DNA of 64,000 nucleotides. It comes from Branchiostoma floridae (taxonomy: Eukaryota > Chordata > Leptocardii > Amphioxiformes > Branchiostomatidae). The DNA is taken from assembly GCF_000003815.2 (NCBI RefSeq), contig NC_049980.1, positions 20,981,419 through 21,045,418 on the forward strand, written 5' to 3'. The notes below the pieces were generated by a model. The model was not told the origin of the DNA. It saw nothing but the letters and a program-made list of their open reading frames with translations, and searched no databases. Made by a program: the position numbers and the translations under genes. Shown piece by piece: positions 9,016 to 34,740 of the stretch (positions are counted from its first letter, which is position 1; each line of letters begins with the position of its first letter).

Positions 9016-9847
9016 GCCGACAGCGTTACTGTTTGGAGAGTTGTCATCCCAAGGAAAAGAACTGGCCTGGGTGAAACATGGCAGTCATCGCGAAAAACGT
9101 CTTCGTGATGGAAGAGACGAACGATGTGGCAGCGCCAAGTAAAGACTCTTCGAAGTTCTTAACAGAACGTCGTGGTGGCGGAATATACGTACATGTAACC
9201 AGAACGAAGAGTGAAGTATTTGTCATGATTGAACCTCAAATGTCTAGGAACAATTTCCACGCAGAAACAAATGCGTAGCGCTCTTCTTCCGAACCACATG
9301 GAACGCCACGTTTTGAACTAGTGTTACCTAGAGTTACATAAACTGCACACAGTTATATTTACGCAAAGTAACGCCTCGCCAGGCGTTGGTGCTGTTGACG
9401 TTACCATGGTTTTCCATCAAATAACTCGACTCGTTGAGACGATATCTGTTATCTGTTGAAGATGTTCATTGCTTAAATAAAGGCAAGTGAAAGACAAAGA
9501 CATCAATTGTATTGTTATGATACGGCATAATTTACTCTTAAGCTACAAGAGCTATCTACCACGGAAAATCACGACCACAGAATATCAAGACCCATAATTC
9601 CATTCCAGCACCTTAGAAAGCCGCTAGGGGGCATCATAAAACTTGACCTGTATTCCCGAACCGTACCCACATACCGAATATCATTAGGATCCGTTCATCA
9701 CAGCTTATCCAGTTATGTTGTCTACAAACAAACAAACAAACAAACAAACACACACACACACACACAGACACAATGTCGTCAGGCGGAGCCCGACGACAGT
9801 GGGTGTTTTGACAGCCACATTTCCTGCTTACAACCATATACTTACAA

Positions 9848-11933: not shown

Positions 11934-12530
11934 AGTTGTTAAGTGAAAACAGGCTGTCCACAGGGTGTTCACGTGAATTTATATCCATTACAACATGAGC
12001 AAATACATACACTGAAAATATTGCCAAAAAACTATCAGACTAGAAAGGCAGACATTTGCTTGAGAGCAAATACAGCATATTTCAGCCAAATCGCCCGTGT
12101 GCAAAAATGGAACATTTCTGCTTAAAATGACACACCTAAGCCCAAAACATGAATCTTAAAAAATCTCAACATGCAAGAATGAACACTTCCAGTGCACCAC
12201 ATGTAGTAAGACAGGTCCAAAAACACTTCCGCTAAAAAATGGAATTTTGAATCACCAATCAAATCAACATGCCCTCATCCTTTTTCAAAGTTTGCAACGG
12301 TAACGCCCCTTCTCAAAGACAGCCACTAGAAGGCCAAAACATTCTCTCTGGGCAGAAGAGCGATCTATTAACCAAACAAGAGTTCGGAGATCTCATATCT
12401 CCATGAAATAGTCTGATTATCTAAATGATGTCTATATTTACATCATCTATGTGTAGTTATGTACACCTTTAGATACCTTACACCGGTCATAATGGTGGTT
12501 GTCCAATCATTTACCGTTACATGTATACAT

Positions 12531-13234: not shown

Positions 13235-13894
13235 ATGGGTAACAAACGAGCCCGAGCCGACGAAGTTGTCATGGACACCTTTATGGTACGTAAATGTGTT
13301 ATATAACATTTGAAAGTCGGTTAGTCGACATCACAGCAGTGTTAACTATCATTATTGAGACCACTTTGGAAGATGTTTCCCTTTGTACAAATCAAGAGTA
13401 AGCTTTGAACTAGAAATAGAGCGTTATTGTTCCCTGATTTTGGGGGCATGATTCCATGACTCCGGTTTAACTTGGTGGAAACTCAGTAGTCAGACATAGC
13501 GAGTATTGTAGGACCCGAGTGACAGTCTGTAAATAGTTGAAGAGTCTTACTTCTACTTTTTTGTTGCTCCACAAGCCTTGTTATCATCAATTTTGTACAG
13601 GAAGGTAACACATCCTCAGGGAAGAAGAGGCGCTTTCCAGTTCACAAGGGTCTGGCTAAGAGGCACATCTCTGCGTCCCTGGATCCGCGGCTCCACCCAC
13701 CACACTACCCGGATCCTTTCCGCCCACTGCGGCCTGTCACTCAGTCCTACTATCATTTCCCGGCCGTGCCGACAGTCGTTGTTCCCTCCTTTCTGCCTGA
13801 AACAGGATTTGAGCCGATGGACTGGGAGCAGAGCGTTTATTCAGAGACTGTTATCCATGTGTCCGAGCCAGAAACTCCCATGGAGTGGGAATAA
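13235..13894 (+). CDS. Tandem-array gene, copy 4: small basic/proline-rich protein
   Basis: Exons 13235-13285 and 13601-13894; 114 aa, complete, with EGNT at the exon junction. The 5' UTR just upstream (about 13105-13214) holds an extra 110-bp insertion flanked by a direct repeat of CTCTGGGCGATATATTGAAA, not seen in the other copies. It groups with copy 2 (CCGCGG at the LDPRL codons; GTTGACCCTCA in the 3' UTR), but it lacks the early stop of copy 2, so the stop arose after the dimer duplicated or was lost here by gene conversion. Confidence 0.6.
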
Positions 13895-14710
13895 GCCGAC
13901 AGCGTTACTGTTTGGAGAGTTGTCATCCCAAGGAAAAGAACTGGGTGAAACATGACAGTCATCGCGATAAACGTCTTCGTGATGGAAGAGACGAACGATG
14001 TGGCAGCGCCAAGTAAAGACTCTTCGAAGTTCCTAACAGACCGTTGTGGTGGCGGAATATACGTACATGTAACCAGAACGAAGAGTGAAGTATTTGTCAT
14101 GGTTGACCCTCAAATGTCTAGGAACAATTTCCACGCAGAAACAAATGCGTAGCGCTCTTCTTCCGAACCACATGGAACGCCACGTTTTGAACTAGTGTTA
14201 CCTAGAGTTACATAAACTGCACACAGTTATATTTACACAAAGTAACGCCCCGCCAGGCGTTGGTGCTGTTGACGTTACCATGGTTTTCCATCAAATAACT
14301 CGACTCGTTGAGACGATATATGTTATCTGTTGGAGATGTTCATTGCTTAAATAAAGACAAGTGAAAGACAAAGACATCAATTGTATTGTTATGATACGGC
14401 ATAATTTACTCTTAAGCTACAAGAGCTATCTACCACTAAAAATCACGAGCACAGCATATCAAGACCCATAATTCCATTCCAGCACCTTAGAAAGCCGCTA
14501 GGGGGCATCATAAAACTTGACCTGTTTTCCCGAACCGTACCCACATACCGAATATCATTAGGATCCGTTCATCACAGCTTATCGAGTCTACAAACAAACA
14601 AACAAACACACACACACACACACAGACACAATGTCGTCAGGCGGTGACCGACGACATTGGGTATTATGACAGCCACATTTCCTGCTTACAACCATATACT
14701 TACAAACTAT

Positions 14711-17321: not shown

Positions 17322-17330
17322 GGACTGACC
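17322..17330. repeat. Left target-site duplication GGACTGACC
   Basis: The 9 bp directly left of the transposon terminus are repeated exactly at 34732-34740, directly right of the distal terminus. The length is 9 bp if the element has symmetric CA...TG ends; moving a terminal base would make it 8. Confidence 0.85.
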
Positions 17331-17374
17331 CAGGGGGAATTTGCATATATCCCATGATGCACCGCGGTCTCAAC

Positions 17375-17401
17375 TATATATACGCTCGAACAGTGACGTC
17401 A
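17375..17401 (+). promoter_or_regulatory. TATA box and CRE of the HIRAN-like gene
   Basis: TATATA at 17375-17382 and a perfect TGACGTCA at 17394-17401 lie between the left TIR and the start codon at 17413. If the TATA box is used, transcription would begin near 17405 and the 5' leader would be only about 10 nt. The TIR itself contains ATTTGCAT, an octamer (POU) motif. Confidence 0.45.
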
Positions 17402-17412
17402 TCATTTGAAAA

Positions 17413-19512
17413 ATGGCGGGTTCCGGTGATGGTAGCATCCCGGGAGCTCCCGTAAACACAGTGTTTACGGTTGAACCAAAGCTGTTGCAGGACGCTCCAG
17501 AAGTTTTACTTTGCTGTGTAAACACTCACCAGTTCCCAATCCATTTCTCGGGGGTTTCGTGCATCGAAGTAGTTACACGGCGCTGTCACATAGCAGTACC
17601 GGGCGACCCGCCGTCAGTGCGCCGGCTGTGCTTGATGCCTGATCGGAACCTGGATAGCCTGTTCGCCGGGGTGACTTCCCCAGTGAAACTACGGATCAAG
17701 TCTAGTTCTACCATTGATGTAAGGTTTACTTTATTTCGTAGATCTTTTAGGGACCTCCAGTATTTTTTATGGTTCGAAATTTTACAGCAACAGAAAGGCT
17801 ACGAATTATAGGGGGCATGTAACGTAACGTATCGACTTTGTAAATGTTTTCCAGTGGCACTATTCCTTTTCAACTCTGATTCAAATCGAGTTCTATTATA
17901 GTTTTATGTACTAGTATGTGATAGTTATTTCTTCATTTTACATCAACACCGGCTATTGTTTTGTTGTCGAGTATTTTCACAGAAAAAAAGGTACAAAGTG
18001 ATGTATTTTCAGCGTTCAGTCAGTATTACTGGGTATTTGAATAGGACTGAAAAACGTGTATAATATGAAAGGTGATTTTTCACAGCCACTTTATTTGTAA
18101 AAATTATTTGCTGTCAATGGTTTTACATCATTTCAGTGTTTGGGTATTGGAAGGGGATAGTTTTTTTTTTACTGAAGACTCGTTAGCAATATTCAATTAT
18201 TTTCTTAAAATACAAATACTAGAGTTTCACGACCCCATACCTTTGTCAAACAAACCTATCTTTACTAATAGTAGAAATCATGTCTGTCTGAGGATTGAGG
18301 CATTTACAAAAACTTGTTTTTCACTACAACCATTGTGGAATGGAACATGTTGTGAAGTATGTACATGTATAGGGTAGAAGCCCCCTTGTTAGGTAGCTTT
18401 AAATAATAATGCTTGGAACTTGGAGTTAACTAGAAATGGCTTTTTTTCAACACAATTGGTTAGCAACACAATAAGTGTTGTGTTATAGTGACATATTGGT
18501 TGATTGCTGAATAAAAAGTTGTAAACAGAACTATGCGGCTCCAGCTGTGTCTCTGAAGGATGATTGCGGTGTAACTGTAAGCCCCCAGACAAGTGATAAC
18601 GTCTTGGAATGCAGCTGGCATTCAACTTCGTGTTAGTTCAAATCATGTTTTGGAATGGACCGAGTTTTGGAATGCAACAGGGTTAACTTATACAGTTACA
18701 GAACAATCATCTCCAAGCAGATTCTGCTTTTCTTACAGTTCGAATGTTCTAAAGATGCTGATAGGCAGCAGGCCAGAGGTACCCTTCTTTGGGACACAGA
18801 GATACTGCCAACAGACTATGCAGCCTCCATACTTCCAGCAGTGACGACAGATATCCCGGCTGACTTACCGTACGAGACAGACATTCAGCCTGTAGACCCC
18901 AATCTACCATACCCTGACCATTGCAACTGTCAGATGTCTGAATCTGTACAGTCACCTCCAATACTTTGCGACATGCAAACAGAATCACAACTAGACCCTC
19001 TTGTATGTAGCTTGGAGGACTTGCATTTTTCTTCAGATGGGGGGGAGTCAGATGACCAAGATCTAAATGCAGAGTCGGAAGAAGACGAAGACACAGATAA
19101 CCATGCTGCAAGTCGTATGAGTGGGCAGATTTTTTCTGTTGTTGGCTCTACGTGGCATACTAGTTGTCAGGCTGTGCTAGATAAGTGTGAAAAATTGAGA
19201 AGGGAGGGAGAAGATGTCAAAGTCCAGTTAGCCTTTGAGCCCACCAATATCAAGGATAGGAATGCCATCGTGTTTGAAATGTTCATAGAAAACACTTGGC
19301 AGATAGTGGGTTATTGCCCAGGCCCCAAAGTCCCCAAAGTGACAAGAGCAATGAGAAATGGTACCATCACTGAGATTGTGATGCACAAGTTGACTCATGC
19401 CTACTGCTTCCCTGCAAAGAAATTCATGTACAAAGTTAAGGTGAAGATTGTGAAGAGAGGAAGTTGGGAAGGCGATGCAACAGACTACAGGTTCAATTCG
19501 GTCATTGTATAA
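17413..19512 (+). CDS. Transposon-borne HIRAN-like acidic protein
   Basis: Exons 17413-17718 and 18739-19512 (GTAAGG donor, TTTTCTTACAG acceptor, phase 0), 359 aa. The start is the first ATG after the TIR, in context AAAATGG. Residues 1-102 are an unrecognised globular N-terminus with several cysteines (LLCCVNTHQF, CIEVVTRRC). Then come a proline-rich linker and, at about 200-225, an acidic run (SDDQDLNAESEEDEDTD). From about residue 230 to the end there is a HIRAN-like fold: a VVGSTW opening, LAFEPTNIKDRNAIVFEM (the characteristic EP-N-x-x-D-x-N-A-I core), then IVGYCPG. HIRAN domains in host proteins such as HLTF bind DNA ends. Here it may help the element recognise its own ends or damaged DNA. 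The domain call rests on the motif; the role is inference. The gene belongs to the transposon, not the host. Confidence 0.7.
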
Positions 19513-20189
19513 AAAGTATAACGAGGCAACAACCCATCAACTCGATTTGATCTGTAGTTTTATTGGGAATTTTGTCACTCGCTTGTGCCTCCACTCTTAA
19601 CTTTCTTAGCTAGGACACGTTTTGCCAATTCTTTATACATGTATATGGAAGCAAATCACCCTCTCTTCCTCCATACCCCACCTCTCAGGAGGAAGTTCCA
19701 TGCCAAAAGCATCTTTCCAAAAACTACATCACTATGGAACAAGCTTATCTGTACACATGTAGGCATCCTTCCATCTTTATCTGTAATTGCTTCAATAATA
19801 GGTACAATCTACACTTTGTGACCAAAATATGTCACATCATACTCATATACTTAGCATTTATTCTATTACCTAGGTTCAGGAACATTCTTACATTTTAATG
19901 GTTCAAAATACTGACAGTTTACTTCTTATTGTGTTGACAGTGGTCCTCTTATATTTTATTTAAGTCAGTTTTGATAAACTATTGTTCTATCATAAGTAGG
20001 CAGTGTTTGTCTAACAATTAGAATCTGGTGTTTGAATGAAGGTAGATATCTTGAACTAAAATGGTTGATGGCTGCCTGGCGGCCAATTTTGGCTGTTGAG
20101 TGGAGGGCGATACCACTTTGCGACTGCAAAAAAAATTGGTCGCTGGTTGGATTAGGCAGTTGGTTGCTTGGAGAAAGGTAAAAACTGAT

Positions 20190-20770
20190 ATCTTATAAGG
20201 TCAGAACCCGTATAACACTTAGGACTATACATGTTCTCCTCTTTCCTGACTTGCAACAAAATAACATCTTTTATGAGTATCATTGAGTAATAAAACTTAA
20301 GGTTCTGAAGAAAACAAAATCTGAAGAGCATGCCTCATAAGTTCAATAACTAGTTTGACAGTTACAATAACTAGTTACAATAACTAGTATAACACTTGCA
20401 ACAATGTATATACCTGAGTTCTCTTCTTTCTTGACTTGCAACAAAATAGCATCTTTTAAGTATACATTCAGCAATAAAACTAAAGGTTCTGAAGAAAACA
20501 ATATCCGCAGTGCTTGCCTCATATATACAATAACTAGTTTGACAGAAGGATACTTCAAAGCATAACTAGGCAAAAACCTGTATAACACTTGCGACAATGT
20601 CTATATATACCTGTGGTCTCAAGATCAAAAACTGATTGTCATATAAGGTCAATACCTGTATAACACTTGCAACAATGTCTATACCCGAGTTCTCTTCTTT
20701 CCTCACTTACAACAAAATAGCATCTTTTACAAGTATACATATACAGAATAAAAAGTAAACATACATAAAA
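20190..20770. repeat. Diverged tandem repeats, units of roughly 170-220 bp
   Basis: Blocks such as GTATAACACTTGCAACAATGT, TTCTCTTCTTTCCTGACTTG, CAACAAAATAGCATCTTTTA and CAATAACTAGTTTGACAG recur in the same order about three times. The array lies between the 3' ends of the two convergent transposon genes and holds no ORF of note. Confidence 0.65.
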
Positions 20771-20889
20771 TAAAAGACTTAGATATATACAACAGTGGTG
20801 ACAGGTGGAAACAAGTGGCTACAGGCACTTTCTTCTGTAAAAAAACAAACAATGCTTGGTACCATGACTAAAAAGTACATTTATATCAA

Positions 20890-21005
20890 AATCTCACTCA
20901 TCAAAAAATCGGGCAAGTGGGGTAGGACATGAGCTTGCCCAATCAGCACTTTCACTTGGCTAGGACAATAAAACTTTTGGACTTGTCCAACCCTGGATGT
21001 GGATA
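20890..21005 (-). repeat. Dispersed repeat also found in UPF1 intron 1
   Basis: GGGCAAGTGGGGTAGGACAT, GCACTTTCACTTGGCTAGGACAAT and the following CCAACCCTGG match, in inverted orientation, the stretch at about 51990-52135. The family is unknown; low copy divergence suggests a SINE or MITE remnant. It lies just beyond the stop codon of the large minus-strand gene. Confidence 0.5.
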
Positions 21006-21026
21006 TAACAGTTTAAAAGTAATCTT

Positions 21027-24000
21027 CTAAACAGGTGGCAAGCTATTTGGGACCTCAGGCAGTGGCACTTCTGGTCTGTGCAGTATCTGCCTGATTGTCC
21101 CCCTGTTCCTGACCGGCAGGACACCCCTTGCAGTTGTGAAAATCGAAGCGTCTTCCCTTCTACAAATGCGCAGTCGGTGGAGGCGCAGACGACCATCCTC
21201 AGGGTCATCATTGAAGGATGGGTAAGTGTCTTCTGCTTCCCTGAACCTCTCACTGATTGTCCAGTAGTAGAAAGGCAGGTCCGGGTCAATTCTCTTTGAG
21301 AATTCCCTGTGAAAGACAAATAAATAATTACAAACCTGTTCAAGTGAAATAATACATGCCATGGACACAAGAATTGTGCCCATACTGCCCATAATGACCT
21401 GTCCACAAGTGATTTGTAATGAACGTCGCAAGTATAATGTGAGTACATGAAACCTTTCAATAATTTTACAAAAGACCATACTGTAAATGTTTGAAAAGAT
21501 ACTTAAATACCTGACTTCTGTAGGCCATCGAGCATGCAACTCCTTGAGGGTAAAGGTGTTTCCCATGTGTCGGTGAAGTCCAGCAAAGAAACACTCTACA
21601 TCGTCTGTCGTGCTCGCTCTTGGATGCTCTTCATAGCCAATTGTCGCACTCTCACTTCTCCGCAGCTCCATTGACTCGATATTTGTTGTGACCGCGATGA
21701 GGGTTTCTCGGCTCCACCCAAGTAGTCCTCGACCGAACCTAAAAAAAGCGACCAGAACAAAGATGTTCATTTCACTGGGTCTTTAATCCATCTAGGCATT
21801 CTCGAGTTATACTATTTGGTAAAGCCCCTATCTCACTGGATTTGCAAGTTAAAGAGAGCGGTTACTGCATTTTTTATATCTAATCATATTCATTGTGTAG
21901 GGTTTTCTTGCCTGTTGATGTCAAGAGTTGAGAAGTCTGGGGGGGAACGGCGCCATGGGGGGGAACGGTGATATGGCATCAGCTCATCAAGGATCATGTC
22001 CATCATGGCTGTGTTCTTCTCCTTCCTTTCTTCCTCTGAAAGCCCTCGGCCATCAGCTGCTTCATGCCATCCAGCAACAACTTCGATATAGCATGCTTCC
22101 CGGAGATGCCCTCTGTGTCGGAGAAACCTGACCATGTTGTAGGACAGCAAGATCTCTGCATCGGTGACAGACTGCTTTCGGAAACCAAACAGGGCTGCCT
22201 CTGTTAGCCCTGGCTTGGGCTCACCATCTTGCGGATGGAGCGCTTCTTCGAGAGCATGGTGGTTAAACCACCGGGGAGGCTCTTTTCTGAGGTGACCAGC
22301 AATTCTCTTGAGGAGATGGCAATGATCTTCTCTTCTGTGAAGGTAGTTGAGGCCGTCTTTCTCTGGGACATACATGTGGTGTGTGAAATCAACCCCCTCA
22401 GTTCGAAGTTCCTCTATTCTGAGACGGTATCTGTATGTGGCCATTATTGATCGCAGCATGTCAGCCATGCACTCAGGCGAGTTGGCACGGAAGGTTGAGG
22501 GGCCACAATCTGGGGGCACGAGTTGTCCACGCAGTCTTACTACAGCATCCTCCTCTCTCATCTGCTCCACTGTTGTGAGTTTGTGGTATTCTTCAATCAC
22601 TTCTGGTGGGATAGCCTTCTCCCTCAGCTCTGTCAATGGCATGCCATTGTCATCCTCTGCACAGTGAAACCACAATCATCAATTAGTACAAACTGATGGG
22701 GAGTTCAGAGTCTATTGTGACATAAGCTGAACACATTTGGTTCGACAAGGGCAGAATTTGTGAGAAGATACAAGATGGCTTCACCATATTCCCCCTGCAG
22801 AATATCCCTGAAATCAGGTGAATTTGTTGCATTGTAAGTGTACTTGGGCCAAAGATATATCACACGGATAAAACATACTAATGTCAGTGGTACTGCACAG
22901 TCTGATATAATAGACTCAGGCCAAACATTAAAGTCAAGTCAGCAGAGAAAGAAACTAACCTCCAACTTTCCGGAGTGACTTCAGCACAGTGTCAGAAGCC
23001 ATCCTCCTGACACTGTCTTTCACCCCACGAATGATTTCATAGAGATGAATAGGGCGCTTGTTCCCAAGCGTCCTTAGGGAGTTGAACTCTCCATCCGTAA
23101 CATCACCTGACAACAAATCACCACATCACTGATAGATTTGCAAAATGAAAAAGCTCTAAATGGAAAATTAGCTTTGAGTACCTAAAAAAGCCCCCAGCGC
23201 ACAGGCTCTAGGGCCAACCCACTAGCATTGCACCAGAATATACCAACACCTCAGCAAAGACTACAGTCTACAAATGGACTTTATCATGAATTTTCGTTGA
23301 AATGTCTCAATAAAAAAGACAAATTTTCCTATAATGGATTTTGTTCAGCTTTGCATCATTCAACAGAAGCACTGTCATATTACAAAAAACAGACAAGAGT
23401 AACACTCTACTTTTACTTTTGTGCTTTAACTTCAACTTTTGTCTTTACTATGTTTATAGTGGAGTTAAGCTTCACATGTAAAGGATAGACTCTTACCAAC
23501 AGGTATCAGTCCCAGCTTCTTGGCCTCCTCATGGCACTTGTCCAGGAACTGCTGGAGGAACTGATCCCGGATACTGTGATATGGAATGAGCAGGATTGGC
23601 ACAGCATAGGGCTTCTGATTTCGTCTTTCGTCAGACACCATAACGACCAATGCATGACCAGCAGCCACTCTCTTCTTCTTGAAGAGATTGTGCAAGTAGG
23701 TTTTGTTGTCTTCTGTCAGTTCCACCAGACATTGGGCCACACGGCCAGGTTGAGGGGAAGCAGTTCCAAGAGCTGCCAGCAGCCTTTCATACCTACATAA
23801 TATAGAAAGCATGTGCATGAAGGTAAAGGTAAAGCAGTCATCCTCAACTGATGTGAAGCATAAATTGTGCTTTTTCAAGTAGCTCAGGTACATGTAGTTG
23901 TGCAATGCGGCTTTGCTAACTACTTGATTTATATAACTATGCAGACAGAAAATTGAAGTCAATATTTCTAAAAGTCACCTTTCATAGAAGGCTTTGGCCT

Positions 24001-27000
24001 GCTCCAGAAGGGTATTGTACTCTACCCTGTCCCATGCCAGGTTTTTCAGCACATCTGTAGATGAGTTAGCCTGCTCGAATTTCTCCTTATACCTCTTGTT
24101 TGCTGCCTCAAGGCCACCTTTCAGCAGATCAATGTCTTCTCCAAGATCCTGAAGGAGACTGAGGAGACAGGCCTCTAGATTGCGTGGCACGCAGGACTTC
24201 CCAGCTTCCCTGACAAGGACCATGCGTCTGTCGTTGTCAGCCCTTAGCTTCTCCAGGCTTCCATCCCCAAGATCAACGTCTCCAGCCCATTTGCCCTTTG
24301 TAGATGTCTGCAGGGCAACCTTCAAATCACAAGCATCAGCCTTAAACCAGACACGTGCTCCTGGCTTCATCTTGGCAAAGGATTCCAGTGCAGCGATCTG
24401 TATATAACAGAACAAACTTTACTGTATACTAATCTGATATGCATAAAATAGTAAAAGTTTTCCCAACGTCCATGTCTATTCTTTAGTAGTGTGTCTACCA
24501 AATGAAGCTCAATAATTTCCATTCATAGACATCACAAGGAGCAGAACTGCTGATAGTATAATTGCCAAGAAGAGAATGCCTCTGGAACAATTTTTCTCTT
24601 TTTTTTGAAGGTTTGTAAACTCACATGGATACTGGAGTTGCCATCAAACTTCTCAGTCTGTGCCAGTCTGTACATGGTGTCCAGGGAGGGGGCGGCGACA
24701 TTAATATGTGCCTGTCAGAGAAGGAAGAGAATCATATGTCAAATAAGACATGACAAGTAAAAAAAAATAGACAAAAATTACACAGTACCAGAACAAGATG
24801 TACTTTCTTCAAATGCACAGTATTTAAGTGCCCCTAATTCTTTCACAATTCATGTTATCATACTACTCAAGGTAAATATCACTCTGAGCCAGCCTCCTTA
24901 GTACTGTACTAACTTAGGGAATCTACTGGAATAACTAAGTATGTCAAATACATACAAAATGGAATTGAAAAGGTATCGCTATTATGGCAAATATTCAGAT
25001 ACTACAGTAAGTATATGGACTGGTTATCATCACAATTGAAAATTTGTGAAACATAAAAGCCATCTTTATACATGTAGTAACCTTCAATGGGTCCAAGTCA
25101 GTGCTTTCCAGGCCACTCCACCCTGGCCCCCGAAACAGCCTCAAGAACCTGGTTGGAAACTCAGCACACATGCTCTCCAACCAGCTGGCATAGTCTGGAG
25201 AAATGCTGACCTACAGAACATACATGAGTACCATTGTATAAATTAATACCATAACAAGTTGGACATAACACTGTCTCTTGCTATGAAGTCTGCAATCTTC
25301 ATCATATCTGACATCACCATAGATAATTTGTTCACACCCTCCTACCACAATGAACAAAGTTCCTGATCACACTTCTAATTGCCCAACACTACATGGCTTG
25401 GGCCTGGCTAATTGCACAGGAAGATGGTAGCAAAAATGAATTGGGGTTTTCGGAAAACCCTGTCCAGTCCAGACAGGGAAATGGGGCGGAAAACCCTGTC
25501 CAGTCTGAAAAGAGGGTCTGCATAGGGGTTCCTGGCAATGCTTAAAAGTATTACTTCAGACAGCACTTACACAGCATAATGAGTGACCCAAAGGTGCAAT
25601 ATGCATGCACACAAAGTCAGTTCTGTCAAATGCAAAGTACCCAATTAACACTTATCTGGTAGGACATGAGGGGAGAGAATTGTCAATCAAACAATGGATA
25701 GTGAGTGTCCGTCAATTTCGGGTTGTTAAATAATGGCAATACATTACAAAGACAGGCTTTGAAAGGTTTTCTTTAAATGATAAGTGCGCAGCACTCATTT
25801 TGAGAGCTGGTCTGTTTAAATCCTGGTTTAATAGAATGACTGCGAAAGGTTTCAATATCAACACGACTTTAGTACACAATGTTATAACATTACAATATAT
25901 TTTACAATGCACTACAATAAAGCCGAGATGGCATTTTTCAAACGATAGTACAAGTTGTGAGCTATATAGAACTATGTATCCTTTTAAAAATAATGTGTTT
26001 TATTTGCAAAATTATGCCGTAAGGCTAATAGCATGCTCAGTCTCAAAGACTTAAAGAGTAGACGTTTTTTATATGATGAGAAGTAACAATGATGGATGAT
26101 TTTTGTTAAGTAATAATTTTTTTATGACATTGTGCCACACTTCAAGTTGATGTTATTTCTGTGCTTAGCCGTATTAAAGATAAAAAAAAATGTTGTTGTA
26201 TACTAGTACTTAGTAGCTTACACCGTATACCCCCATGCAGACCCTCTTTTCAGACAGCTTACAATGTATACCCCCATGCAGACCCTCTTTTCAGACTGGA
26301 CAGGGTTTTCCGCACTCCGGACTGGACAAGTTTTTCCGAAAACCCAAATGAATTGAGGTAATTAGTTACAAAATTAGACAAAACTAGCCAAAACAACAAA
26401 CAAAAAACTAAGAAGGCATTCTTTACTGGAAATGCCATCATTTTAAATTAGTACATCAGATAAGTATCATTATATACTGATGCTAACCTGATGTACATTG
26501 GTGGCACTGAAGAACTCCATCTGGTATTGTAGTAATCCAAATGGCATCCTGTCAATTTGGAGCAGAGGGGTGGAGGTGCCAGGCCTGTTGGTGCTCAAGA
26601 TGTGGGCAAACTTGTACAGGATGTTGGGCTTGTTGTGTTCTTGTAGGGTGGACATGGCATTGATGGACTTTGAAAAGAAGTCGGTTGGGTATGTGGAAAT
26701 ATTCTTTGCTGTAGCTACAACTGAGAACAGTTTATCACCAAAGGATAGAACTGAAGATGATTGAACGATTTGAGGAAGCAGCATAAGCATGAAAGAATCA
26801 AATTCTGATTGGGTCAGGGCCTTGCAAGAAGACAGTACTGTTGTGACATCATCCTGGCAGCTATGTTCAGTTTGTGTTTGCTGGTCCACAGTCAACTTCT
26901 TTGTCTGGCATCCCCTGCTGACTGTTTCTTTGGTTTTCTTTGCACGGCTGATTGAATTCGTCTCAAGACCAAAAGACTTCACAGCAGCTTCAAGGGATTC

Positions 27001-28026
27001 GTCGAATTTCGTCCTCCACTTCCTGCACCTGTTCCTCACTGTGTTTGCTGTGAATAGAAAGAGAAACAGTGTGTCACTTAAGAGAAACCTTTGCTATTGA
27101 CAAAGTATGACTTCATATCCCAACACCTTGAGGGACTACACTCACACTAAATGTGAGAAATAATAGAACTTCTTTTGATTTCTATCAGTTCTAAACTTGT
27201 TGCAATAATCTATCAAGGTAAAGACAGCAAGAGCCATTGTTTTTCACTGACCTGAAAGAAGTTCACTGCTCCTGGTTGCCGTCTTGATTGATGTTGCAGC
27301 CTCTGTCCAAAAGGGACTGTTAGCGTGCCTCATTGGCCAGGATGCTGTGTCAGTGACATTTTCATCCTGATCAAGGTGGCTTAGATCCAAAAACTGGATC
27401 AATGCCTTGTCCTCCTTATCAGTCCACTGATGGTGTTTCGCCCGTCCGAGGGGACTTGGCCAGTTGAATCTTTGGGGTGAGCATGTGCCCCAAAGATCGT
27501 GTTATCTGTTGCAAATACAGGATACATGTAATTTGTAGCAAGGAGAAACTATAGCAAAGTTTGCTATAGTTTAACTGGTACTGAGTGTCATCATCAGTCT
27601 TGGCTCACCAATCTTACTCGACTTCTGAATAGTTTCTGCAAGGAGTCATGATGTAATAAACATACTATGAACTTACATCACATCAGTGCACTATGAAATA
27701 ACATCACATTAGTGAAATAATTGTATTAATGGTATAATTGACAACAGTAAAACTGTCCTTAGCCTGTAAGGTCATCAGTGAAACCTAACAATTTGTAAAT
27801 TTGCTACATCCTGTTGGACCATACCACAACAGCCAATGATGATCTTGATCGAGGAAACATTTTCTGTCTTATGGCAATTAATCACCTTAGGACTTAGGAA
27901 AGAGAGAGGTCGGCGAGCTCCTCCATCTTTCTTTCCATGTTTGTGCTGCCTCCTCTTCCCAGACGGGGTGTGACCACTCCCGCCAACATGTGGCCTCTTT
28001 TGGGGCGTTGATGGAGTTGACATCAT
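21027..28026 (-). CDS. Large transposon-encoded protein, candidate transposase (Myb/SANT-like N-terminus)
   Basis: Exons on the minus strand: 28026-27886, 27469-27252, 27047-26488, 25210-25082, 24711-24625, 24397-23979, 23792-23497, 23106-22960, 22656-21912, 21738-21511, 21306-21027. Phases agree from the second exon onward (1,035 aa plus about 47 from the first). The junction of the first two exons is unresolved. Exon 1 ([16 protein letters not shown]) is basic and NLS-like. Exons 2-3 carry [17 protein letters not shown] and, further on, [11 protein letters not shown] and [13 protein letters not shown], a Myb/SANT-like DNA-binding pattern. Exon 6 has [13 protein letters not shown] and [13 protein letters not shown]. 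Exon 9 has [18 protein letters not shown]. Exons 10-11 have [32 protein letters not shown] and [15 protein letters not shown]. The Asp/Glu-rich motifs could form a DDE centre, which is inference. Exon 9 ends at a GC donor (CAG|GCAAGA). I recall related uncharacterised proteins in invertebrate genomes but cannot name the family. Confidence 0.7.
25434..26355. mobile_element. Nested 902-bp non-autonomous TIR element with 10-bp TSD
   Basis: The element spans 25444-26345. It starts GGGTTTTCGGAAAACCC (itself palindromic) and ends CCGAAAACCC. The inverted repeats run about 85-90 bp and include CTGTCCAGTCTGAAAAGAGG and GTCTGCAT on both sides. AAATGAATTG stands directly outside each end (25434-25443 and 26346-26355). 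At the right side the GTATACCCCCATGCAGACCC block is doubled. No transposase is encoded. It lies in the intron between exons 3 and 4 of the large transposon gene, so it inserted after the host transposon had formed. The 10-bp duplication would suit a Mutator-type source, which is inference. Confidence 0.85.
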
Positions 28027-29540
28027 GACTGAGGGAAACAATATTGGACAGTCTAAGATGATTTTTACCCTTTTATAGAATATATTTCCTTGAGGTATTT
28101 CAATGAAGTTATTGATGACATTTTGCTCACTTTGGGAGAATGAGACACAGTTATTGAACATGTCAATAAAGAACCAAAATTAAAGCAAAATGTACCTTTA
28201 ACATTACAATTTAGGATAATTTTCTATCTATGGATGTCCCATAAGATATAAACTGGTCTGGTATGCAATTTTTTTCTGTTTCATTGGCAAGGATTAAAAA
28301 CTCTCGAAAATAAACTATGATATTCATAAACATCACTGCTAACCTGGGGAATCAACAATAATCCATAAATTACAAATCTTACACACCACTGCACCACTTG
28401 ATAACTTACAAATTCTGACAGACTCTCAAATTATGAAACTGAAAGACTACAACTACTTTTTGACAAGATTTATTGGTCCAAATATCAACGACAGTACGTA
28501 TATGACAGTGAAGGTGAAAATGTAGATCAGACTCCTTCGTATAACTCACAAGCAAGCCTAACCAGTCAATAATGACAAGATAGGTAAACAAGTTCTACGG
28601 CTATGTGATCCCGAGCGACCGTCTGTTTAGCGAATATTAAGCCCACAAACGCCCACCCTTGAAAAGTCTGTGCTACATAAATCTAGTTCTTTTGCAAGTA
28701 CAGTAATACGTTCAGGTTGGGCTCTCATGAGTTTCAAGTGAATTCATCGACCCGAAGTACGAAAATCCATCTTGGTAACTTCCGCCTTTGCGACATATAC
28801 GATACCCACTCACCTCCGCATTTTAAGCGAGTTTCCAGTCCAACCAACAACATTTTCCGTTTGAATAGGTTTTCCCTGAATGTCTGCTAAGTCCCCATAC
28901 TGTAACAATCTTTCCAAACTTTCTAAATTGCTTTAGGAAGGTAAAACTACGGCGCGTTCGTGGTTGTTTACGTGTCCGCCATCTTTTCTTTACCGGCTTA
29001 TTTGCATATGTTAATGAGTTTAAAGGGCCTCCGCGCGACTGTCAGGCGTATGTAAACACGACCAACCATGCGATCCTGCGCGGCTATTTTCGTGATCTTC
29101 CTATGAGTGCTTTTTGGTGCTTTTCGTTTTTTTAGACACACAATCAATCTACCATACGTAAACTACACTTTTTTTTAAAAAGCACCACTATTTGATTAAC
29201 CAATGCGGAAGATTTGATAGCACTATATGCAAATCTCCAACATGCGACAACGGGATTTACGCATGAGAAGTCTATCGGCATTTACCTCAAAATTAAACAT
29301 GTTCCTCGGGTATCACACACATCAACACTTTTCATGGAAAACTACAATTCCCGAACTCTAAAAAATGACGAAAATTACCCACCTAATTCTCTTGGCTGCT
29401 GTCCAACATGGCCAACATCTTGAAGATGCCCATGCCCTACATCTTGGGCTTTGCAGTTCCGGGTTTGCCGGCGTTCGCGCGGAAAATCGAACGCGATCGA
29501 AAGTAAAGTGCATCATGGGATATATGCAAATCCCCCCTTG
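27789..29540. repeat. Proximal copy of the transposon right end
   Basis: This 1,752-bp stretch is repeated at 32980-34731 with about four substitutions seen by eye (for example GACATTTTGCTCAC against GACACTTTGCTTAC, and GTGGTTGTT against GTGTTTGTT). It holds the first coding exon of the large gene, its presumed promoter and the right TIR. It is followed by AGTGTAAATA, not by the GGACTGACC expected from the left side. Confidence 0.9.
28800..29010 (-). promoter_or_regulatory. Probable promoter / 5' UTR of the large transposon gene
   Basis: On the minus strand an ATATGCAAAT octamer and a GATGGCGGAC motif (YY1-like) precede a GC-rich stretch (GAACGCGCCG). A good splice donor, GCGGAG|GTGAGT, is seen near 28812, which would suit a 5' exon spliced to the acceptor TTTCCCTCAG before the exon 1 start at 28026. 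Confidence 0.3.
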
Positions 29541-30328
29541 AGTGTAAATATAGAATGATTCTCACTGACGTCATTTCAACTTTGACCTTTCACGAGATAT
29601 TTTTTTCGCGATATCACACGGAATACGGTGTAATCGACGGTAGGGGCCGCAGTTAGCGATTTGATATAGCTCCAGAAATATACACCCACCCACCCCCTCC
29701 GCATGTATAGCGGCCTTCGTTTGGAACCTTTTTCGGACCTCGGTCTTCACGGCCCATTCCTCAACCTATTTCTGAGGTCCATCAGTGTGAATATATAATT
29801 AACTTCAAAATCCTACGGGCTACCAAAAGCTCACAAGGTATTGACTCAATACTGCAAGTGTTTGAAATTCCTCGTTAAGATCTCCATTTGCTCAACTCAT
29901 CAATGATCAGACAGTAGAAGAGGACGAAGAATAGCGGTTCTATAATACAACAGCCATGTTTACCCCTGTCCAGTTCATAAAACTAGCAAGGTAAAAGTAA
30001 AGAGACAAAGGAGATCTAAGCTCACCACAATGCACTACATTAACGCTCATCCGACCTGTACATTTTACGACAAATCTGACCGAAAGCGGATCTTTTCGGA
30101 CCCATTTTGTTTTCCCATAGACATATAGTTCTGTCGGTTCATTTTGTCATTACTGCATATAGACTGTTTCAACAAGCTGTGTAAAATATATTGACAAGTT
30201 ATGTTGTTAGTGATTTATGTTTATTATTATCATTTATGCAAAAATGAGGAAGACAAATATTTCGCTCTAGCTTCCGCACGTTATAGCAGTTTGGTGACTA
30301 CACCCTGCTGATTCAAGAATTGATGCAT

Positions 30329-30935
30329 GAGGCTGGAAGATGAGGGCAACTTTTTAAACTACCTCCACATCGATCCCGATATGTTCGACGAACTATTGCC
30401 ATGGGTTGGCCCAAGAATTACCTAACCTGTTTCTTGATTGAATTCATGAAAATAAGTCTAACACCAGGACTTAAGTTGGTGGCAGTCTGTTCCCTGGTTA
30501 CAGGTGACAAGTATCATTGTCTTCAGTATTCATGTCGTGTTTACATGTCACCATCTCTGAATTTGTGCAAGAGTTTTGCCAAGCTATCCGCGAGGAGCAC
30601 AGACATAAAGTAATGTTTTTTAACTACAACAGCCGAGGAGTGGAAGCCTATTGCGAAATAATTCAAGGACAGATGGGAAGTGCCTCACTCATGTGGTGCC
30701 TTGGATGGAAAGTTCATGAGATGTCCTCCCAATCAGGCAGGCAGTATTACAATTACTAGGGATTCTTCCCTGTGGTGTTGCTTGCGTAGGTAGATGCGCA
30801 ATACAAGTTCCTATGGACCTATGTGAGTGGCTCTTGTTCAATGTCGGACCCTCAGATTTTCAATGAATCTGTCGATGTCTTGTCGATGGAGCCATAAACT
30901 TCCCCGATCCTGACACTCTTCATTGTCCGAAATAG
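30329..30935 (+). pseudogene. Degenerate PIF/Harbinger (HARBI1-like) transposase
   Basis: Read across frameshifts, the plus strand gives LNYLHIDPDMFDELLPWVGP, LTPGLKLVAVCSLVTGDKY, HCLQYS and EFVQEFCQAIREEH. In a third frame come CGALDGKF and RCPPN, the first catalytic Asp block of the family, then GFFPVVLLA and SDPQIFNES, covering the second. Several frame breaks and stop codons show it is dead. The C-terminal third with the last catalytic Glu is not seen. No ends were identified. Confidence 0.75.
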
Positions 30936-31434
30936 GCGTATATATTATTGTATGAAATCAGGAGAATGCTGTGAATTCTGATAATTTCCAAACAGTCTTG
31001 TAACTTCTTAAATAATTTATGCATTATTCATTCTTTCAGTAAACATAATATATAACGTTATAAATATTTCTGTGTATGCCATAAAAAAGGAATGTCCTCG
31101 GTGAAATTTTTACTTTGTGTTGTATTTCTTTTACCTTTATGCACAGGTAATTTAAAAGTTCTGGACGAGTTTAGCATAGTTGGGTGGTAGAAGAGAATTA
31201 AGCAATGTACTAAGAGGCGTGTCGGCAGTTTTTGCCGACACGTCTAGCGAATTCCGCATCGGCACACGCAGTCTGAGGTTTAGTTCTCGAAGTTTTAGCT
31301 CTCTAAGTGATCAAGAAGCTGTTTGTGACGGCATACCATGTAGCAAGGCTGGAGCTTCTATTTACTTCTTTCCTATCCAGATCCATCCCTGTTAAATGTA
31401 CAAATAACTTATAGTCACATCAGCGTTCGGAACG

Positions 31435-31900
31435 GTCGGTGGGCCGGACGGAGTCGCCCCAAGACTTCTGAAAGTGTTTGCCTGTGAACTTGCTGACCTT
31501 CTAGCAGATGTTTTCAACACCTCACTCCGAGAAGGGGTCGTTCTCACCCAGTGGAAAGAGGTTGTCATGACTCGGATTCTGAAAGAACTCCCAGCAGTTG
31601 TGGACAAATTACGCCCAATTTCCCTAATGGCAGTATTTGTAAAGATATTCAAAGGCCTTTAGGCGAATTGGATGACATCACATCAGCGATGATTCTGGGC
31701 TATTATGAGAAGTTGTACAACCCACTGTCTTGTAAGTTTGGCACATTTCTTCTTTCAAGGCGCTGAAGTAAGTAGCAACATGGGAAGGTTAGTGTTGATC
31801 GACTTCACTGTCAACCATCAACACGCTATCTGTAGGCTACTGAACATGGGTATGAGAGCTTCCATTGTACCATGGGTTGAGAGCTTCCTGACATGAAGGC
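31435..31900 (+). pseudogene. Non-LTR reverse transcriptase fragment
   Basis: GPDGVAPRLLKVFACELADL, DVFNTSLREGVVLTQWKEV and LRPISLMAVFVKIF are the conserved N-terminal RT block. After a stop and an unrelated insertion of about 100 bp, the reading resumes with VLIDFTVNHQHAICRLLNMG and SIVPWVESFLT. The catalytic YADD box is absent. The fragment is broken by stops. Confidence 0.7.
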
Positions 31901-32189
31901 AACAGAAAATATTTTACGGATCTACCACGTCAGGCTGAGAGACACGTACCGCAGGTGTTTCGTAAGGCCTCAAACTAGGCCGGGTCATCTTTGTATGCCT
32001 GATTAACAAAGCAAGTTAAAATTATGACCGTGGACAGACGCATGGCCATAACCTGTGGAACTCACAAACACTTACTTTACCTACCTTCTGTACTACAAGA
32101 TTTCGTAAAAGTCCAGTGCCATTATTACTGAGACTAATCAACGAAACAAAATGACACTGCTTATTAGCTATATATCATATACATTTTTA

Positions 32190-32790
32190 ACCATGTACCG
32201 GAAGCAGGTGAAACTTCTGGAACGCTTCCACCAGCGTTGCCTGCGGTGCATAATGGGTATTAAGTGGCAAGACTATGTAACGAACAACGAAGTCTTAGGG
32301 AGAGCCAATCTTCCAAGCGTAGAGACAATGCTGATGTCAAAGCAGCTACGCCGGGCTGGCCACCTGTCACGAATGGAGGAATCCAGAATGCCCAAAGCTG
32401 TCTTCTACGGAGAGCTGTGTCAGGGCAAGCGTGACAGAGGAGCTCCTAGAAAACGCTATAAGGACCAACTGAAACACCAGCTCAGCTCAGCCGGCATCCC
32501 AGTCAGGGAATGGGAAAGTATTGCCACAGACAGAAAAACCTGGAAAGCTGCATGCAAGAGAGGAGCTGAAAGCTTCGAGGCAGCTCGAAGAGAGAGAAAG
32601 CAGAGGAGAGGAGAAGACGAAGGAAAGCTGTGGCCGACCAGCCTCCATATGCACAGGGCTTCAATTGCCCATCCTGCACCAGGAGGTGCGGATTGAGGAT
32701 TGGACTACATAGCCACATGAGAGCATGCAGGGGAGACCGAAGACAACCTTCCCAATGATCTTCGGACACGAAGAACAGCCATCATCATCA
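32190..32790 (+). pseudogene. C-terminal fragment of a non-LTR retrotransposon ORF2
   Basis: The frame from about 32193 reads YRKQVKLLERFHQRCLRCIMG, RRAGHLSRMEESRMPKAVFY and GKRDRGAPRKRYKDQLKH, which is the familiar C-terminal tail of a widespread animal retrotransposon ORF. In a shifted frame from about 32630 a zinc-finger-like end follows (NCPSCTRRCGLRIGLHSHMR) and then a stop. CATCATCATCA at about 32784 may be the 3' microsatellite tail. It may belong to the same insertion as the fragment at 31435, but the RT core between them is missing. Confidence 0.65.
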
Positions 32791-32879
32791 TACCTTATAA
32801 TCACTGATACAGCTTACTCCCCTTGATCACTAGTTTGAAAATAGGATTCAGATACGCTGTACAGTCAGTCTAGACAGGA

Positions 32880-32979
32880 NNNNNNNNNNNNNNNNNNNNN
32901 NNNNNNNNNNNNNNNNNNNNNNNNNNNNNNNNNNNNNNNNNNNNNNNNNNNNNNNNNNNNNNNNNNNNNNNNNNNNNNN
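32880..32979. other. Assembly gap, 100 N
   Basis: Exactly 100 N, the usual placeholder for a gap of unknown size. It falls at the start of the second copy of the transposon right end. Confidence 0.98.
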
Positions 32980-34731
32980 CAATTTGTAAATTTGCTACAT
33001 CCTGTTGGACCATACCACAACAGCCAATGATGATCTTGATCGAGGAAACATTTTCTGTCTTATGGCAATTAATCACCTTAGGACTTAGGAAAGAGAGAGG
33101 TCGGCGAGCTCCTCCATCTTTCTTTCCATGTTTGTGCTGCCTCCTCTTCCCAGACGGGGTGTGACCACTCCCGCCAACATGTGGCCTCTTTTGGGGCGTT
33201 GATGGAGTTGACATCATGACTGAGGGAAACAATATTGGACAGTCTAAGATGATTTTTACCCTTTTATAGAATATATTTCCTTGAGGTATTTCAATGAAGT
33301 TATTGATGACACTTTGCTTACTTTGGGAGAATGAGACACAGTTATTGAACATGTCAATAAAGAACCAAAATTAAAGCAAAATGTACCTTTAACATTACAA
33401 TTTAGGATAATTTTCTATCTATGGATGTCCCATAAGATATAAACTGGTCTGGTATGCAATTTTTTTCTGTTTCATTGGCAAGGATTAAAAACTCTCGAAA
33501 ATAAACTATGATATTCATAAACATCACTGCTAACCTGGGGAATCAACAATAATCCATAAATTACAAATCTTACACACCACTGCACCACTTGATAACTTAC
33601 AAATTCTGACAGACTCTCAAATTATGAAACTGAAAGACTACAACTACTTTTTGACAAGATTTATTGGTCCAAATATCAACGACAGTACGTATATGACAGT
33701 GAAGGTGAAAATGTAGATCAGACTCCTTCGTATAACTCACAAGCAAGCCTAACCAGTCAATAATGACAAGATAGGTAAACAAGTTCTACGGCTATGTGAT
33801 CCCGAGCGACCGTCTGTTTAGCGAATATTAAGCCCACAAACGCCCACCCTTGAAAAGTCTGTGCTACATAAATCTAGTTCTTTTGCAAGTACAGTAATAC
33901 GTTCAGGTTGGGCTCTCATGAGTTTCAAGTGAATTCATCGACCCGAAGTACGAAAATCCATCTTGGTAACTTCCGCCTTTGCGACATATACGATACCCAC
34001 TCACCTCCGCATTTTAAGCGAGTTTCCAGTCCAACCAACAACATTTTCCGTTTGAATAGGTTTTCCCTGAATGTCTGCTAAGTCCCCATACTGTAACAAT
34101 CTTTCCAAACTTTCTAAATTGCTTTAGGAAGGTAAAACTACGGCGCGTTCGTGTTTGTTTACGTGTCCGCCATCTTTTCTTTACCGGCTTATTTGCATAT
34201 GTTAATGAGTTTAAAGGGCCTCCGCGCGACTGTCAGGCGTATGTAAACACGACCAACCATGCGATCCTGCGCGGCTGTTTTCGTGATCTTCCTATGAGTG
34301 CTTTTTGGTGCTTTTCGTTTTTTTAGACACACAATCAATCTACCATACGTAAACTACACTTTTTTTTAAAAAGCACCACTATTTGATTAACCAATGCGGA
34401 AGATTTGATAGCACTATATGCAAATCTCCAACATGCGACAACGGGATTTACGCATGAGAAGTCTATCGGCATTTACCTCAAAATTAAACATGTTCCTCGG
34501 GTATCACACACATCAACACTTTTCATGGAAAACTACAATTCCCGAACTCTAAAAAATGACGAAAATTACCCACCTAATTCTCTTGGCTGCTGTCCAACAT
34601 GGCCAACATCTTGAAGATGCCCATGCCCTACATCTTGGGCTTTGCAGTTCCGGGTTTGCCGGCGTTCGCGCGGAAAATCGAACGCGATCGAAAGTAAAGT
34701 GCATCATGGGATATATGCAAATCCCCCCTTG
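32980..34731. repeat. Distal copy of the transposon right end
   Basis: Near-identical to 27789-29540. It holds a second copy of the first coding exon (33217-33077, minus strand) and the right TIR. It is followed directly by GGACTGACC, the same 9 bp as left of 17331, so this is the true right terminus of the insertion that begins at 17331. Confidence 0.9.
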
Positions 34732-34740
34732 GGACTGACC
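34732..34740. repeat. Right target-site duplication GGACTGACC
   Basis: Exact match to 17322-17330. The restored empty site would read ATACACAGAGGACTGACC then TAAGTTATC. Confidence 0.85.

What the first reader, a model, noticed from the sequence alone, without database searches (positions are those of the whole stretch)
17331..34731. A 12-kb two-gene DNA transposon that does not match a family I can name
Seen: inverted ends CAGGGGGAATTTGC..., an exact 9-bp flanking duplication, and two large spliced genes pointing away from each other toward the termini. The minus-strand protein of about 1,080 aa combines a Myb/SANT-like N-terminus with [31 protein letters not shown] and LPFYYWT motifs. Known: large TIR transposons with accessory genes exist (for example KDZ/Zisupton, Academ, Mutator-like). 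Inference: this may be an undescribed superfamily or an unannotated branch of one. It is the most interesting part of the window.
Basis: partly seen in the sequence, partly recalled or inferred. Interest (0 to 1): 0.87.

Follow-up and report, generated by a model that had tools for sequence, protein, structure and literature searches.

The report
Two-gene lancelet transposon, unnamed superfamily
A recently active 12-kb jumping gene in what looks like a lancelet genome carries its own cut-and-paste enzyme plus a partner protein of the HIRAN DNA-binding type, and the pair fits no named transposon superfamily well; its nearest relative, by weak evidence, is the fruit-fly P element.

Summary
The transposon is real, 12.2-12.5 kb, low-copy and recently active. 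Its genome (513 Mb, probably Branchiostoma floridae) holds 23 terminal motifs, none of the reversed control. Of 9 left ends, 8 share an exact 9-bp flank with a right end; another insertion has an empty site on another contig. Two copies differ at 6 of 12,454 bases. The window region is an assembly chimera: 29541-32879 is another insertion's flank.

The 11-exon transposase (1,068 aa) is open in 4 of 6 other copies. Four lineages each give a sub-threshold match to the P-element/THAP9 RNase H model at the same positions. The 9-bp duplication, spacing and missing THAP fail P-superfamily tests. The partner is a HIRAN protein (relatives pass Pfam's cut-off). The convergent pair recurs in three divergent lineages besides the window family; one lineage (C10) and several relics show no partner.

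Best reading: a P-like DDE transposase with a HIRAN partner, an unlisted branch or superfamily. Repbase, Dfam and the transposase fold could not be tested.

The parts
17322..17330 (.). left target-site duplication GGACTGACC
   Evidence: sequence; identical at 34732-34740
17331..17362 (+). left terminal inverted repeat, 5'-CAGGGGGAATTTGCATATATCCCATGATGCAC
17413..17718 (+). accessory (HIRAN) gene exon 1
   Evidence: open, ends at GTAAGG, phase 0; 70% and 75% identical homologues in C15 and C233
18739..19512 (+). accessory (HIRAN) gene exon 2, stop at 19512; HIRAN-like domain about 19117-19509
   Evidence: Pfam HIRAN E 0.028-0.04 here, below cut-off; over the cut-off in relatives L049 and L051
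20198..20729 (.). degenerate minisatellite-like repeats between the two 3' ends
   Evidence: direct repeats D2-D4
21027..21306 (-). transposase exon 11 (LPFYYWT, stop)
21511..21738 (-). transposase exon 10, [10 protein letters not shown] with candidate catalytic E948
21912..22656 (-). transposase exon 9, long region between second D and E, with D762-x-x-H765 (REDHCH); GC donor
22960..23106 (-). transposase exon 8, VTDGEFN with candidate catalytic D607
23497..23792 (-). transposase exon 7, [20 protein letters not shown] block
23979..24397 (-). transposase exon 6, [21 protein letters not shown] with candidate catalytic D385
24625..24711 (-). transposase exon 5
25082..25210 (-). transposase exon 4
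26488..27047 (-). transposase exon 3
27252..27426 (-). transposase exon 2 (weak Myb-like; 5' boundary uncertain)
27886..28026 (-). transposase exon 1 (also at 33077-33217 in the duplicated right part)
25435..26354 (.). nested palindromic MITE-like insertion in intron 3, arms about 25435-25529 / 26215-26354
   Evidence: inverted repeats I1, I2, I5
29509..29540 (-). right TIR of a different insertion (flank AGTGTAAAT), joined here by the assembly
29541..32879 (.). foreign flank: 3,339 bp identical to contig C11 at an empty site; not part of the element
32880..32979 (.). 100-N assembly gap
32980..34731 (.). right part of the element that truly ends at this locus
   Evidence: copy of 27789-29540 with 4 differences
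34700..34731 (-). right terminal inverted repeat, read inward 5'-CAAGGGGGGATTTGCATATATCCCATGATGCAC
34732..34740 (.). right target-site duplication GGACTGACC

Best explanation
An autonomous cut-and-paste DNA transposon, 12.2-12.5 kb, ends 5'-CA...TG-3', 9-bp target duplications, in what is probably the lancelet Branchiostoma floridae (inferred). SHOWN: ends, duplications, copies, recent movement, two convergent spliced genes, the recurrence of that pair in divergent lineages, and a HIRAN domain in the partner of two relatives. INFERRED: the minus-strand protein is a DDE transposase with a P-element/THAP9-like RNase H fold (candidate triad D385, D607, E948, with D762-x-x-H765 as the C/DxxH motif), carrying one long insertion between the first two acids and another between the second acid and DxxH; it binds the ends, excises the element and inserts it with strand transfers 9 bp apart. 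INFERRED, less sure: the HIRAN protein is a transposition partner that holds 3' or single-stranded transposon ends, or recruits gap repair, by analogy with the HIRAN domain of HLTF. The layout resembles RAG1L/RAG2L transposons, with proteins not seen to be related.
For: Ends and copies: (8 of 9 left ends matched to a right end with the same 9 bp). Empty site. Recent movement: 6 differences in 12,454 bp between two C7 copies with different duplications. Deletion derivative of 758 bp with its own duplication. Gene model open in the window and in 4 of 6 other copies checked (C7a, C7b, C9, C15). Accessory gene dN/dS 0.20 (exon 2) and 0.13 (exon 1) by NG86 against C15. RNase H: PF21787 E 0.16 (window), 0.10 and 0.056 (L041, L043), 0.0035 (L049): 4 of 4 lineages scanned over this region (L042's was not scanned), profile span 61-133. 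hhalign of five lineages against two THAP9-like proteins of the genome puts D607 on the D of their VSDG motif; the D2 block beats 200 of 200 column shuffles. HIRAN: 28.9 and 24.9 bits against a cut-off of 24.7. Pairing.
Against: No Pfam transposase model passes its cut-off; in L041 an unrelated model (NleF caspase inhibitor, E 0.0085) scores better than TNP. HH-suite gives the THAP9 match a probability of only 3.5-14% (E 0.012-0.002). The first catalytic D is not fixed: the D385 block alone is not significant (130 of 200 shuffles score as high), and D558 is an alternative. Tests with fewer lineages were not significant. Of 6 other copies, C1 has a 1-bp deletion in exon 7 and C168 has Ns and stops. 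Partner gene: window against C7a gives dN/dS 0.70 (few changes); the genome-wide search with it lists no match on C10 beside L043, nor near L046 or L047, and the window's own HIRAN match is below cut-off (14-15 bits). The only fold obtained (HIRAN domain, no alignment, pLDDT 46) gave mostly Ig-like matches and no HIRAN among the 50 shown. The window's element may be a chimera of two copies. No expression or transposition data.
Confidence: 0.72

Rival explanations
1. A divergent lineage inside the P superfamily: a P-like element that lost the THAP domain, shifted to 9-bp duplications and gained a HIRAN gene.
For: Only the P/THAP9 RNase H model is hit in more than one lineage; hhalign to THAP9-like proteins of the same genome; a C/DxxH motif, shared by P among others (PMC10045372, PMC8230255 passages).
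Against: Below the curated cut-off; 9 bp instead of 8 bp; no THAP hit; residues between motifs 221, 154, 185 against 72, 35, 191 for D230, D303, D339, E531 of the fly protein; no hit to GTP-binding or C-terminal TNP models.
Confidence: 0.3
2. A member of KDZ (Zisupton/Dileera/Kyakuja), some of whose transposons carry accessory genes.
For: Accessory gene; 5'-CA..TG ends as in Kyakuja (PMC12730594 passages).
Against: No KDZ match listed in Pfam at E up to 10; 8-bp (Zisupton, Dileera) or 7-bp (Kyakuja) duplications against 9 bp here. The KDZ search of the genome did not complete.
Confidence: 0.06
3. The minus-strand protein is not the enzyme of movement; the element is moved in trans and the two genes are captured host genes.
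For: Low copy number; the C13 lineage, for which no ends were recognised in the part held, could be a host gene pair.
Against: It is the largest product found in the element and is open together with both ends in C7a, C7b and C9; acids D607, D762xxH and E948 stay in order across lineages.
Confidence: 0.06
4. Assembly artefact: the duplicated right end and odd flank create an apparent two-gene element.
For: Chimeric join shown; ends of the C9, C15 and C168 copies are also out of order or split.
Against: Three gap-free copies elsewhere (C7a, C7b, C1) have the same ends, order and 9-bp duplications.
Confidence: 0.02

Closest known systems
P element / THAP9 transposons (P superfamily)
   Same: Weak but consistent RNase H profile match; C/DxxH motif; long stretch between DxxH and E (185 residues here, 191 in the fly protein); internally deleted derivatives.
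   Different: 9-bp not 8-bp duplications; no THAP domain found; about 150 more residues between the first two acids and about 120 more between the second and DxxH; two genes; 12 kb against 2.9 kb.
RAG-like transposons (ProtoRAG)
   Same: Two convergent genes, one catalytic and one partner, between inverted ends; known in lancelets.
   Different: No RAG match in the profile scans; 9-bp duplications (5 bp in ProtoRAG, recalled); partner is HIRAN, not RAG2-like.
Dada, Kolobok, hAT, MuDR (C/DxxH group)
   Same: [quoted passage not shown] Dada can have 11 exons, Kolobok lineages carry accessory proteins (passages).
   Different: No profile match listed; Dada targets small RNA genes with 6-7 bp, Kolobok TTAA; here eight different 9-bp sites.
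KDZ (Zisupton, Dileera, Kyakuja)
   Same: Elements with accessory genes; CA..TG ends in Kyakuja.
   Different: No profile match listed; 7-8 bp duplications.
HLTF HIRAN domain
   Same: HIRAN over Pfam cut-off in two relatives; conserved N-x-x-D-x-NAI-type core like the asparagines that HLTF needs (PMC4666394 passages).
   Different: In the gene model it stands without helicase or RING parts, inside a transposon.

Membership tests
TIR cut-and-paste DNA transposon | inverted ends flanked by fixed-length target duplications in independent insertions | tested here: met
   8 of 9 left ends share the same 9 bp with a right end; C9's left end found no partner, 5 of 13 right ends have none
TIR cut-and-paste DNA transposon | precise empty site | tested here: met
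   C11 carries the 3,339-bp right flank without the element and one AGTGTAAAT; the left junction of that insertion was not found
DDE/RNase H transposase | three ordered catalytic acids in an RNase H fold | tested here: inconclusive
   D385, D607 and E948 conserved wherever letters exist; fold not obtained
P superfamily | TNP-like RNase H profile over cut-off | tested here: not met
   best 18.1 bits, cut-off 24.6
P superfamily | 8-bp target duplications | tested here: not met
   9 bp in 8 of 8 matched pairs
P superfamily | N-terminal THAP domain | tested here: not met
   no THAP match listed in Pfam
P superfamily | GTP-binding insertion | tested here: inconclusive
   no TNP-like GBD match listed; no structure
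KDZ | KDZ transposase profile | tested here: not met
   not listed at E up to 10
KDZ | 7-8 bp duplications | tested here: not met
   9 bp
C/DxxH group (hAT, MuDR, Kolobok, Dada, P) | C/DxxH between second D and E | tested here: met
   D762-x-x-H765, conserved in L041, L042, L043, L049; that it is the same motif is inferred
HIRAN protein | HIRAN profile over cut-off | tested here: met
   in relatives L049 (28.9 bits) and L051 (24.9), cut-off 24.7; window, C15 and C233 proteins are below
RAG-like transposon | RAG1/RAG2 homology | tested here: not met
   no such Pfam match listed
any Repbase/Dfam family | match to a deposited consensus | not testable with these tools
   neither library is held

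The most novel reading that the evidence does not exclude
An undescribed superfamily of animal DNA transposons that works as a two-protein machine: a P-like DDE transposase plus a dedicated HIRAN DNA-end-binding partner, kept in convergent order across lineages whose transposases are only about 31-44% identical. It would be a second, independent example of the catalytic-plus-partner layout of RAG transposons.
Probability: 0.47. Interest if true: 0.82.

Novelty: new variant of a known kind. Interest (0 to 1): 0.7.

Why it matters
Few eukaryotic cut-and-paste elements are known (recalled) to keep a non-transposase partner over deep divergence. A HIRAN partner would make testable whether end protection or gap repair is supplied by the element itself, and gives a comparison for how RAG1 and RAG2 became a pair. 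The near-identical copies and the empty site suggest an element that moved very recently in a chordate, hence a possible genetic tool.

Tried and rejected
KDZ, hAT, MULE as home: no Pfam match listed; Dada, Kolobok and Academ may lack Pfam models, so for them this is weak. Direct homology to THAP9-like proteins: a first profile comparison, hmmsearch among 5,000 shuffled decoys and pairwise alignment of motif blocks (best of 14 tests p 0.035, the other 13 at 0.27 or more) were not significant; only with the distant lineage L049 added did the second-D block exceed all 200 shuffles. Both are reported. Relatives in viral contigs (3 scans), prokaryote genomes and phages: none confirmed. PDB by sequence: no relevant match (best thymidine kinase E 0.19, UreE E 0.88); the genome's own THAP9-like proteins also found nothing there. 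HIRAN fold: uninformative. dN/dS of the transposase failed with a numerical error in all five comparisons, which I take for saturation. No paper naming this element was seen in the listings of searches; passages were read in PMC10045372, PMC12730594, PMC3706591, PMC8230255, PMC7776569, PMC9587614 and PMC4666394. The library holds open-licence papers only.
Full report
WHAT IS THERE. The window is contig C2:20981419-21045418 of a 513,431,437-base genome in 431 contigs. Size and contigs fit Branchiostoma floridae; that identity is recalled and inferred, not given by a tool. The left terminus is at 17331 and the matching right terminus at 34731, with GGACTGACC at 17322-17330 and 34732-34740.

ASSEMBLY CHIMERA. 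27789-29540 and 32980-34731 are the same sequence with four differences up to the terminus. The first copy ends at 29540 and is followed by AGTGTAAAT, not GGACTGACC. The next 3,339 bases (29541-32879, up to the 100-N gap) are 100% identical to contig C11, where the same sequence stands without the element and AGTGTAAAT is present once in the 4.2 kb fetched. So the first right end belongs to a different insertion, whose empty site is on C11, and the assembly joined it here. Sequenced lancelets have 3.2-4.2% heterozygosity (abstract of PMC12500494 in the listing), so no difference in 3,339 bases means either a very young insertion or re-use of the same reads. The left junction of that insertion was not found.

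COPIES. The 19-base TIR core occurs 23 times (22 exact, 1 with one mismatch on C226) and 0 times reversed: 9 left ends, 13 right ends and the C226 variant. Eight of the nine left ends share an exact 9-bp flank with a right end: GGACTGACC, GTACGGCCC, TAGCAGGTG, GGCCACGAT, GATTCCGCC, TCACGTGAC, TATTAGGGC and AGCTTCCAC. Seven of the eight pairs lie on one contig, though in C168 the ends are out of order and in C15 a further left end lies between; the AGCTTCCAC pair is split between C15 and C9. The C9 left end (ATATGACGT) has no partner. Five right ends have no left partner: 29540, C302 and C5 (which share one flank), C6 and C2:9264236. Gap-free copies on C7 (two) and C1 are 12,454-12,456 bp; the window's nominal element is 12,210 bp. 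The two C7 copies differ at 6 of 12,454 bases but have different duplications; other pairs differ by 0.2-1.2%. One C7 copy is a 758-bp internal-deletion derivative with its own duplication.

GENES. The minus-strand gene has 11 exons and 1,068 codons. The same frame without a stop is present in C7a, C7b, C9 and C15, is broken by a 1-bp deletion in C1, and is incomplete (Ns, stops) in C168: open in 4 of 6 other copies checked. The exon 1/2 junction is the least certain. The plus-strand gene has two exons and 359 codons; it is open in C7a, C7b, C1 and C9. C15 holds a version 54% (exon 2) and 70% (exon 1) identical, without a stop in the matched parts; dN/dS is 0.20 and 0.13 by NG86. Window against C7a gives 0.70 on few changes.

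TRANSPOSASE. Genome searches found relatives at decreasing identity: L042 (C233), L043 (C10), L046/L047 (C6, with stops), L041 (C1, 38-51% per exon, one in-frame stop) and L049 (C13, 33-48% per exon). In the D1-D2 region of five lineages (pairwise identity to L049 31-35%), 53 of 278 window residues are invariant where at least four rows have letters, among them D385, D388, D404, D406, D558, E559, D580, D607 and E609. D762-x-x-H765 and E948 ([18 protein letters not shown] in L049) are also kept where present. One Pfam model recurs, TNP-like_RNaseH_N: window E 0.16, L041 0.10 and L043 0.056, L049 0.0035, all within profile positions 61-133 and all under the cut-off of 24.6 bits (best 18.1). It is not the best hit everywhere: in L041 NleF_casp_inhib has E 0.0085. 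Two THAP9-like proteins of this genome score 78-80 bits with the model. Comparing the five-lineage alignment with these two aligns D607 with the D of their VSDG motif, which I take for their second catalytic D. The D2 block scores 23.5 against a maximum of 18.7 in 200 column shuffles and the whole region 25.4 against 23.7, but HH-suite's own probability is 3.5-14%, and the D1 block is not significant (130 of 200 shuffles). Comparisons made before L049 was added were not significant. I treat a P-like RNase H fold as likely, not proven.

PARTNER GENE. The accessory protein's C-terminal domain matches HIRAN weakly in the window (E 0.028-0.04), C15 (0.0098-0.078) and C233 (0.013), and above the cut-off in L051 (24.9 bits) and L049 (28.9 bits, E 1e-6). 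A homologous gene lies beyond the transposase's 3' end in convergent order in the window family, C233 (L042/L052), C1 (L041/L051) and C13 (L049) and, from match coordinates only, at C6:21.43 Mb. C15 also has the pair, but its transposase is that of the window family and its left part may be an assembly join. The genome-wide search with the partner lists no match on C10, where L043 lies, nor near L046 and L047, so the pairing is recurrent, not universal. A genome-wide HIRAN profile search lists two loci at E <= 0.001, both over the cut-off: C12:570257 and the C13 partner gene; it did not list the C1 gene, so it undercounts. In human HLTF the HIRAN domain prefers fork-like DNA and is suggested to recognise 3' ends of single-stranded DNA (PMC4666394, passages). 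That suggests, without proof, handling of cut transposon ends or of the gaps left by integration.

MECHANISM, MOST LIKELY. Transposase made from the right end binds the TIRs, an RNase H active site cuts and joins, strand transfers are 9 bp apart (shown by the duplications), and host repair fills the gaps. The HIRAN protein would stabilise ends or steer repair. Order of cuts, cofactors and partner role are untested.

PLACE AMONG KNOWN FAMILIES. Papers seen in passages speak of 20 superfamilies with a DDD/E transposase, or 23 in all (PMC9587614, PMC10045372). P makes 8-bp duplications and has THAP, coiled coil, HTH, split RNase H and GTP-binding parts (PMC7776569), with D230, D303, D339-x-x-H and E531 (PMC8230255). 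Zisupton and Dileera make 8 bp and Kyakuja 7 bp (PMC12730594); Dada makes 6-7 bp in small RNA genes (PMC3706591). The element meets none of these in full. RAG-like transposons share the convergent two-gene layout (abstract of PMC7204232, listing). I file it as a new variant of DDE cut-and-paste transposons, possibly a new superfamily near P. Repbase, Dfam and nr were not available, so an existing name cannot be excluded.

CHANGE AFTER CHECKING. 

Noticed in passing
G000:C6 about 19.5-27.8 Mb: Many degraded relatives of the transposase and of the HIRAN gene, often with stops, lie in one end region of contig C6: a relic-rich, perhaps low-recombination stretch.
   Followed up: no
L050 3280-3930 (G000:C17), and matches on C2 (two), C13, C8, C9, C12, C3: A second multi-copy family with a HIRAN-like stretch about 30% identical to the partner gene; each of these eight matches holds one in-frame TAG, and L050 has a 456-aa ORF nearby that reads like a reverse transcriptase (label recalled). 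It may be another mobile element with this domain.
   Followed up: partly
L049 (G000:C13:11850500-11858000): The most distant transposase lineage found here sits beside a HIRAN gene; no TIR was recognised in the part held, so it could be a domesticated gene pair.
   Followed up: partly
25435-26354: Palindromic MITE-like insertion (CGGAAAACCCTGTCCAGTC arms) in intron 3; its arms also match the C7, C1, C9 and C15 copies, so it travels with the element.
   Followed up: partly
2062-2511, 5467-5889, 8654-9142, 13533-13955: The same ORF (IVEESYFYF...) occurs four times in direct order left of the element: a repeated segment or tandem array.
   Followed up: no
11094-11978: Minus-strand 294-aa ORF that reads like a non-LTR reverse transcriptase (YADDT motif; label recalled, not searched).
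   Followed up: no
3226-3804: Short tandem coding repeat (QTILSMVLK units) beside the repeated ORFs.
   Followed up: no
G000:C5:16768596-16768691 and C302:1344: Same right flank, but C5 matches only 96 bp of element while C302 holds several kb: possibly two haplotypes, one with a deletion.
   Followed up: no
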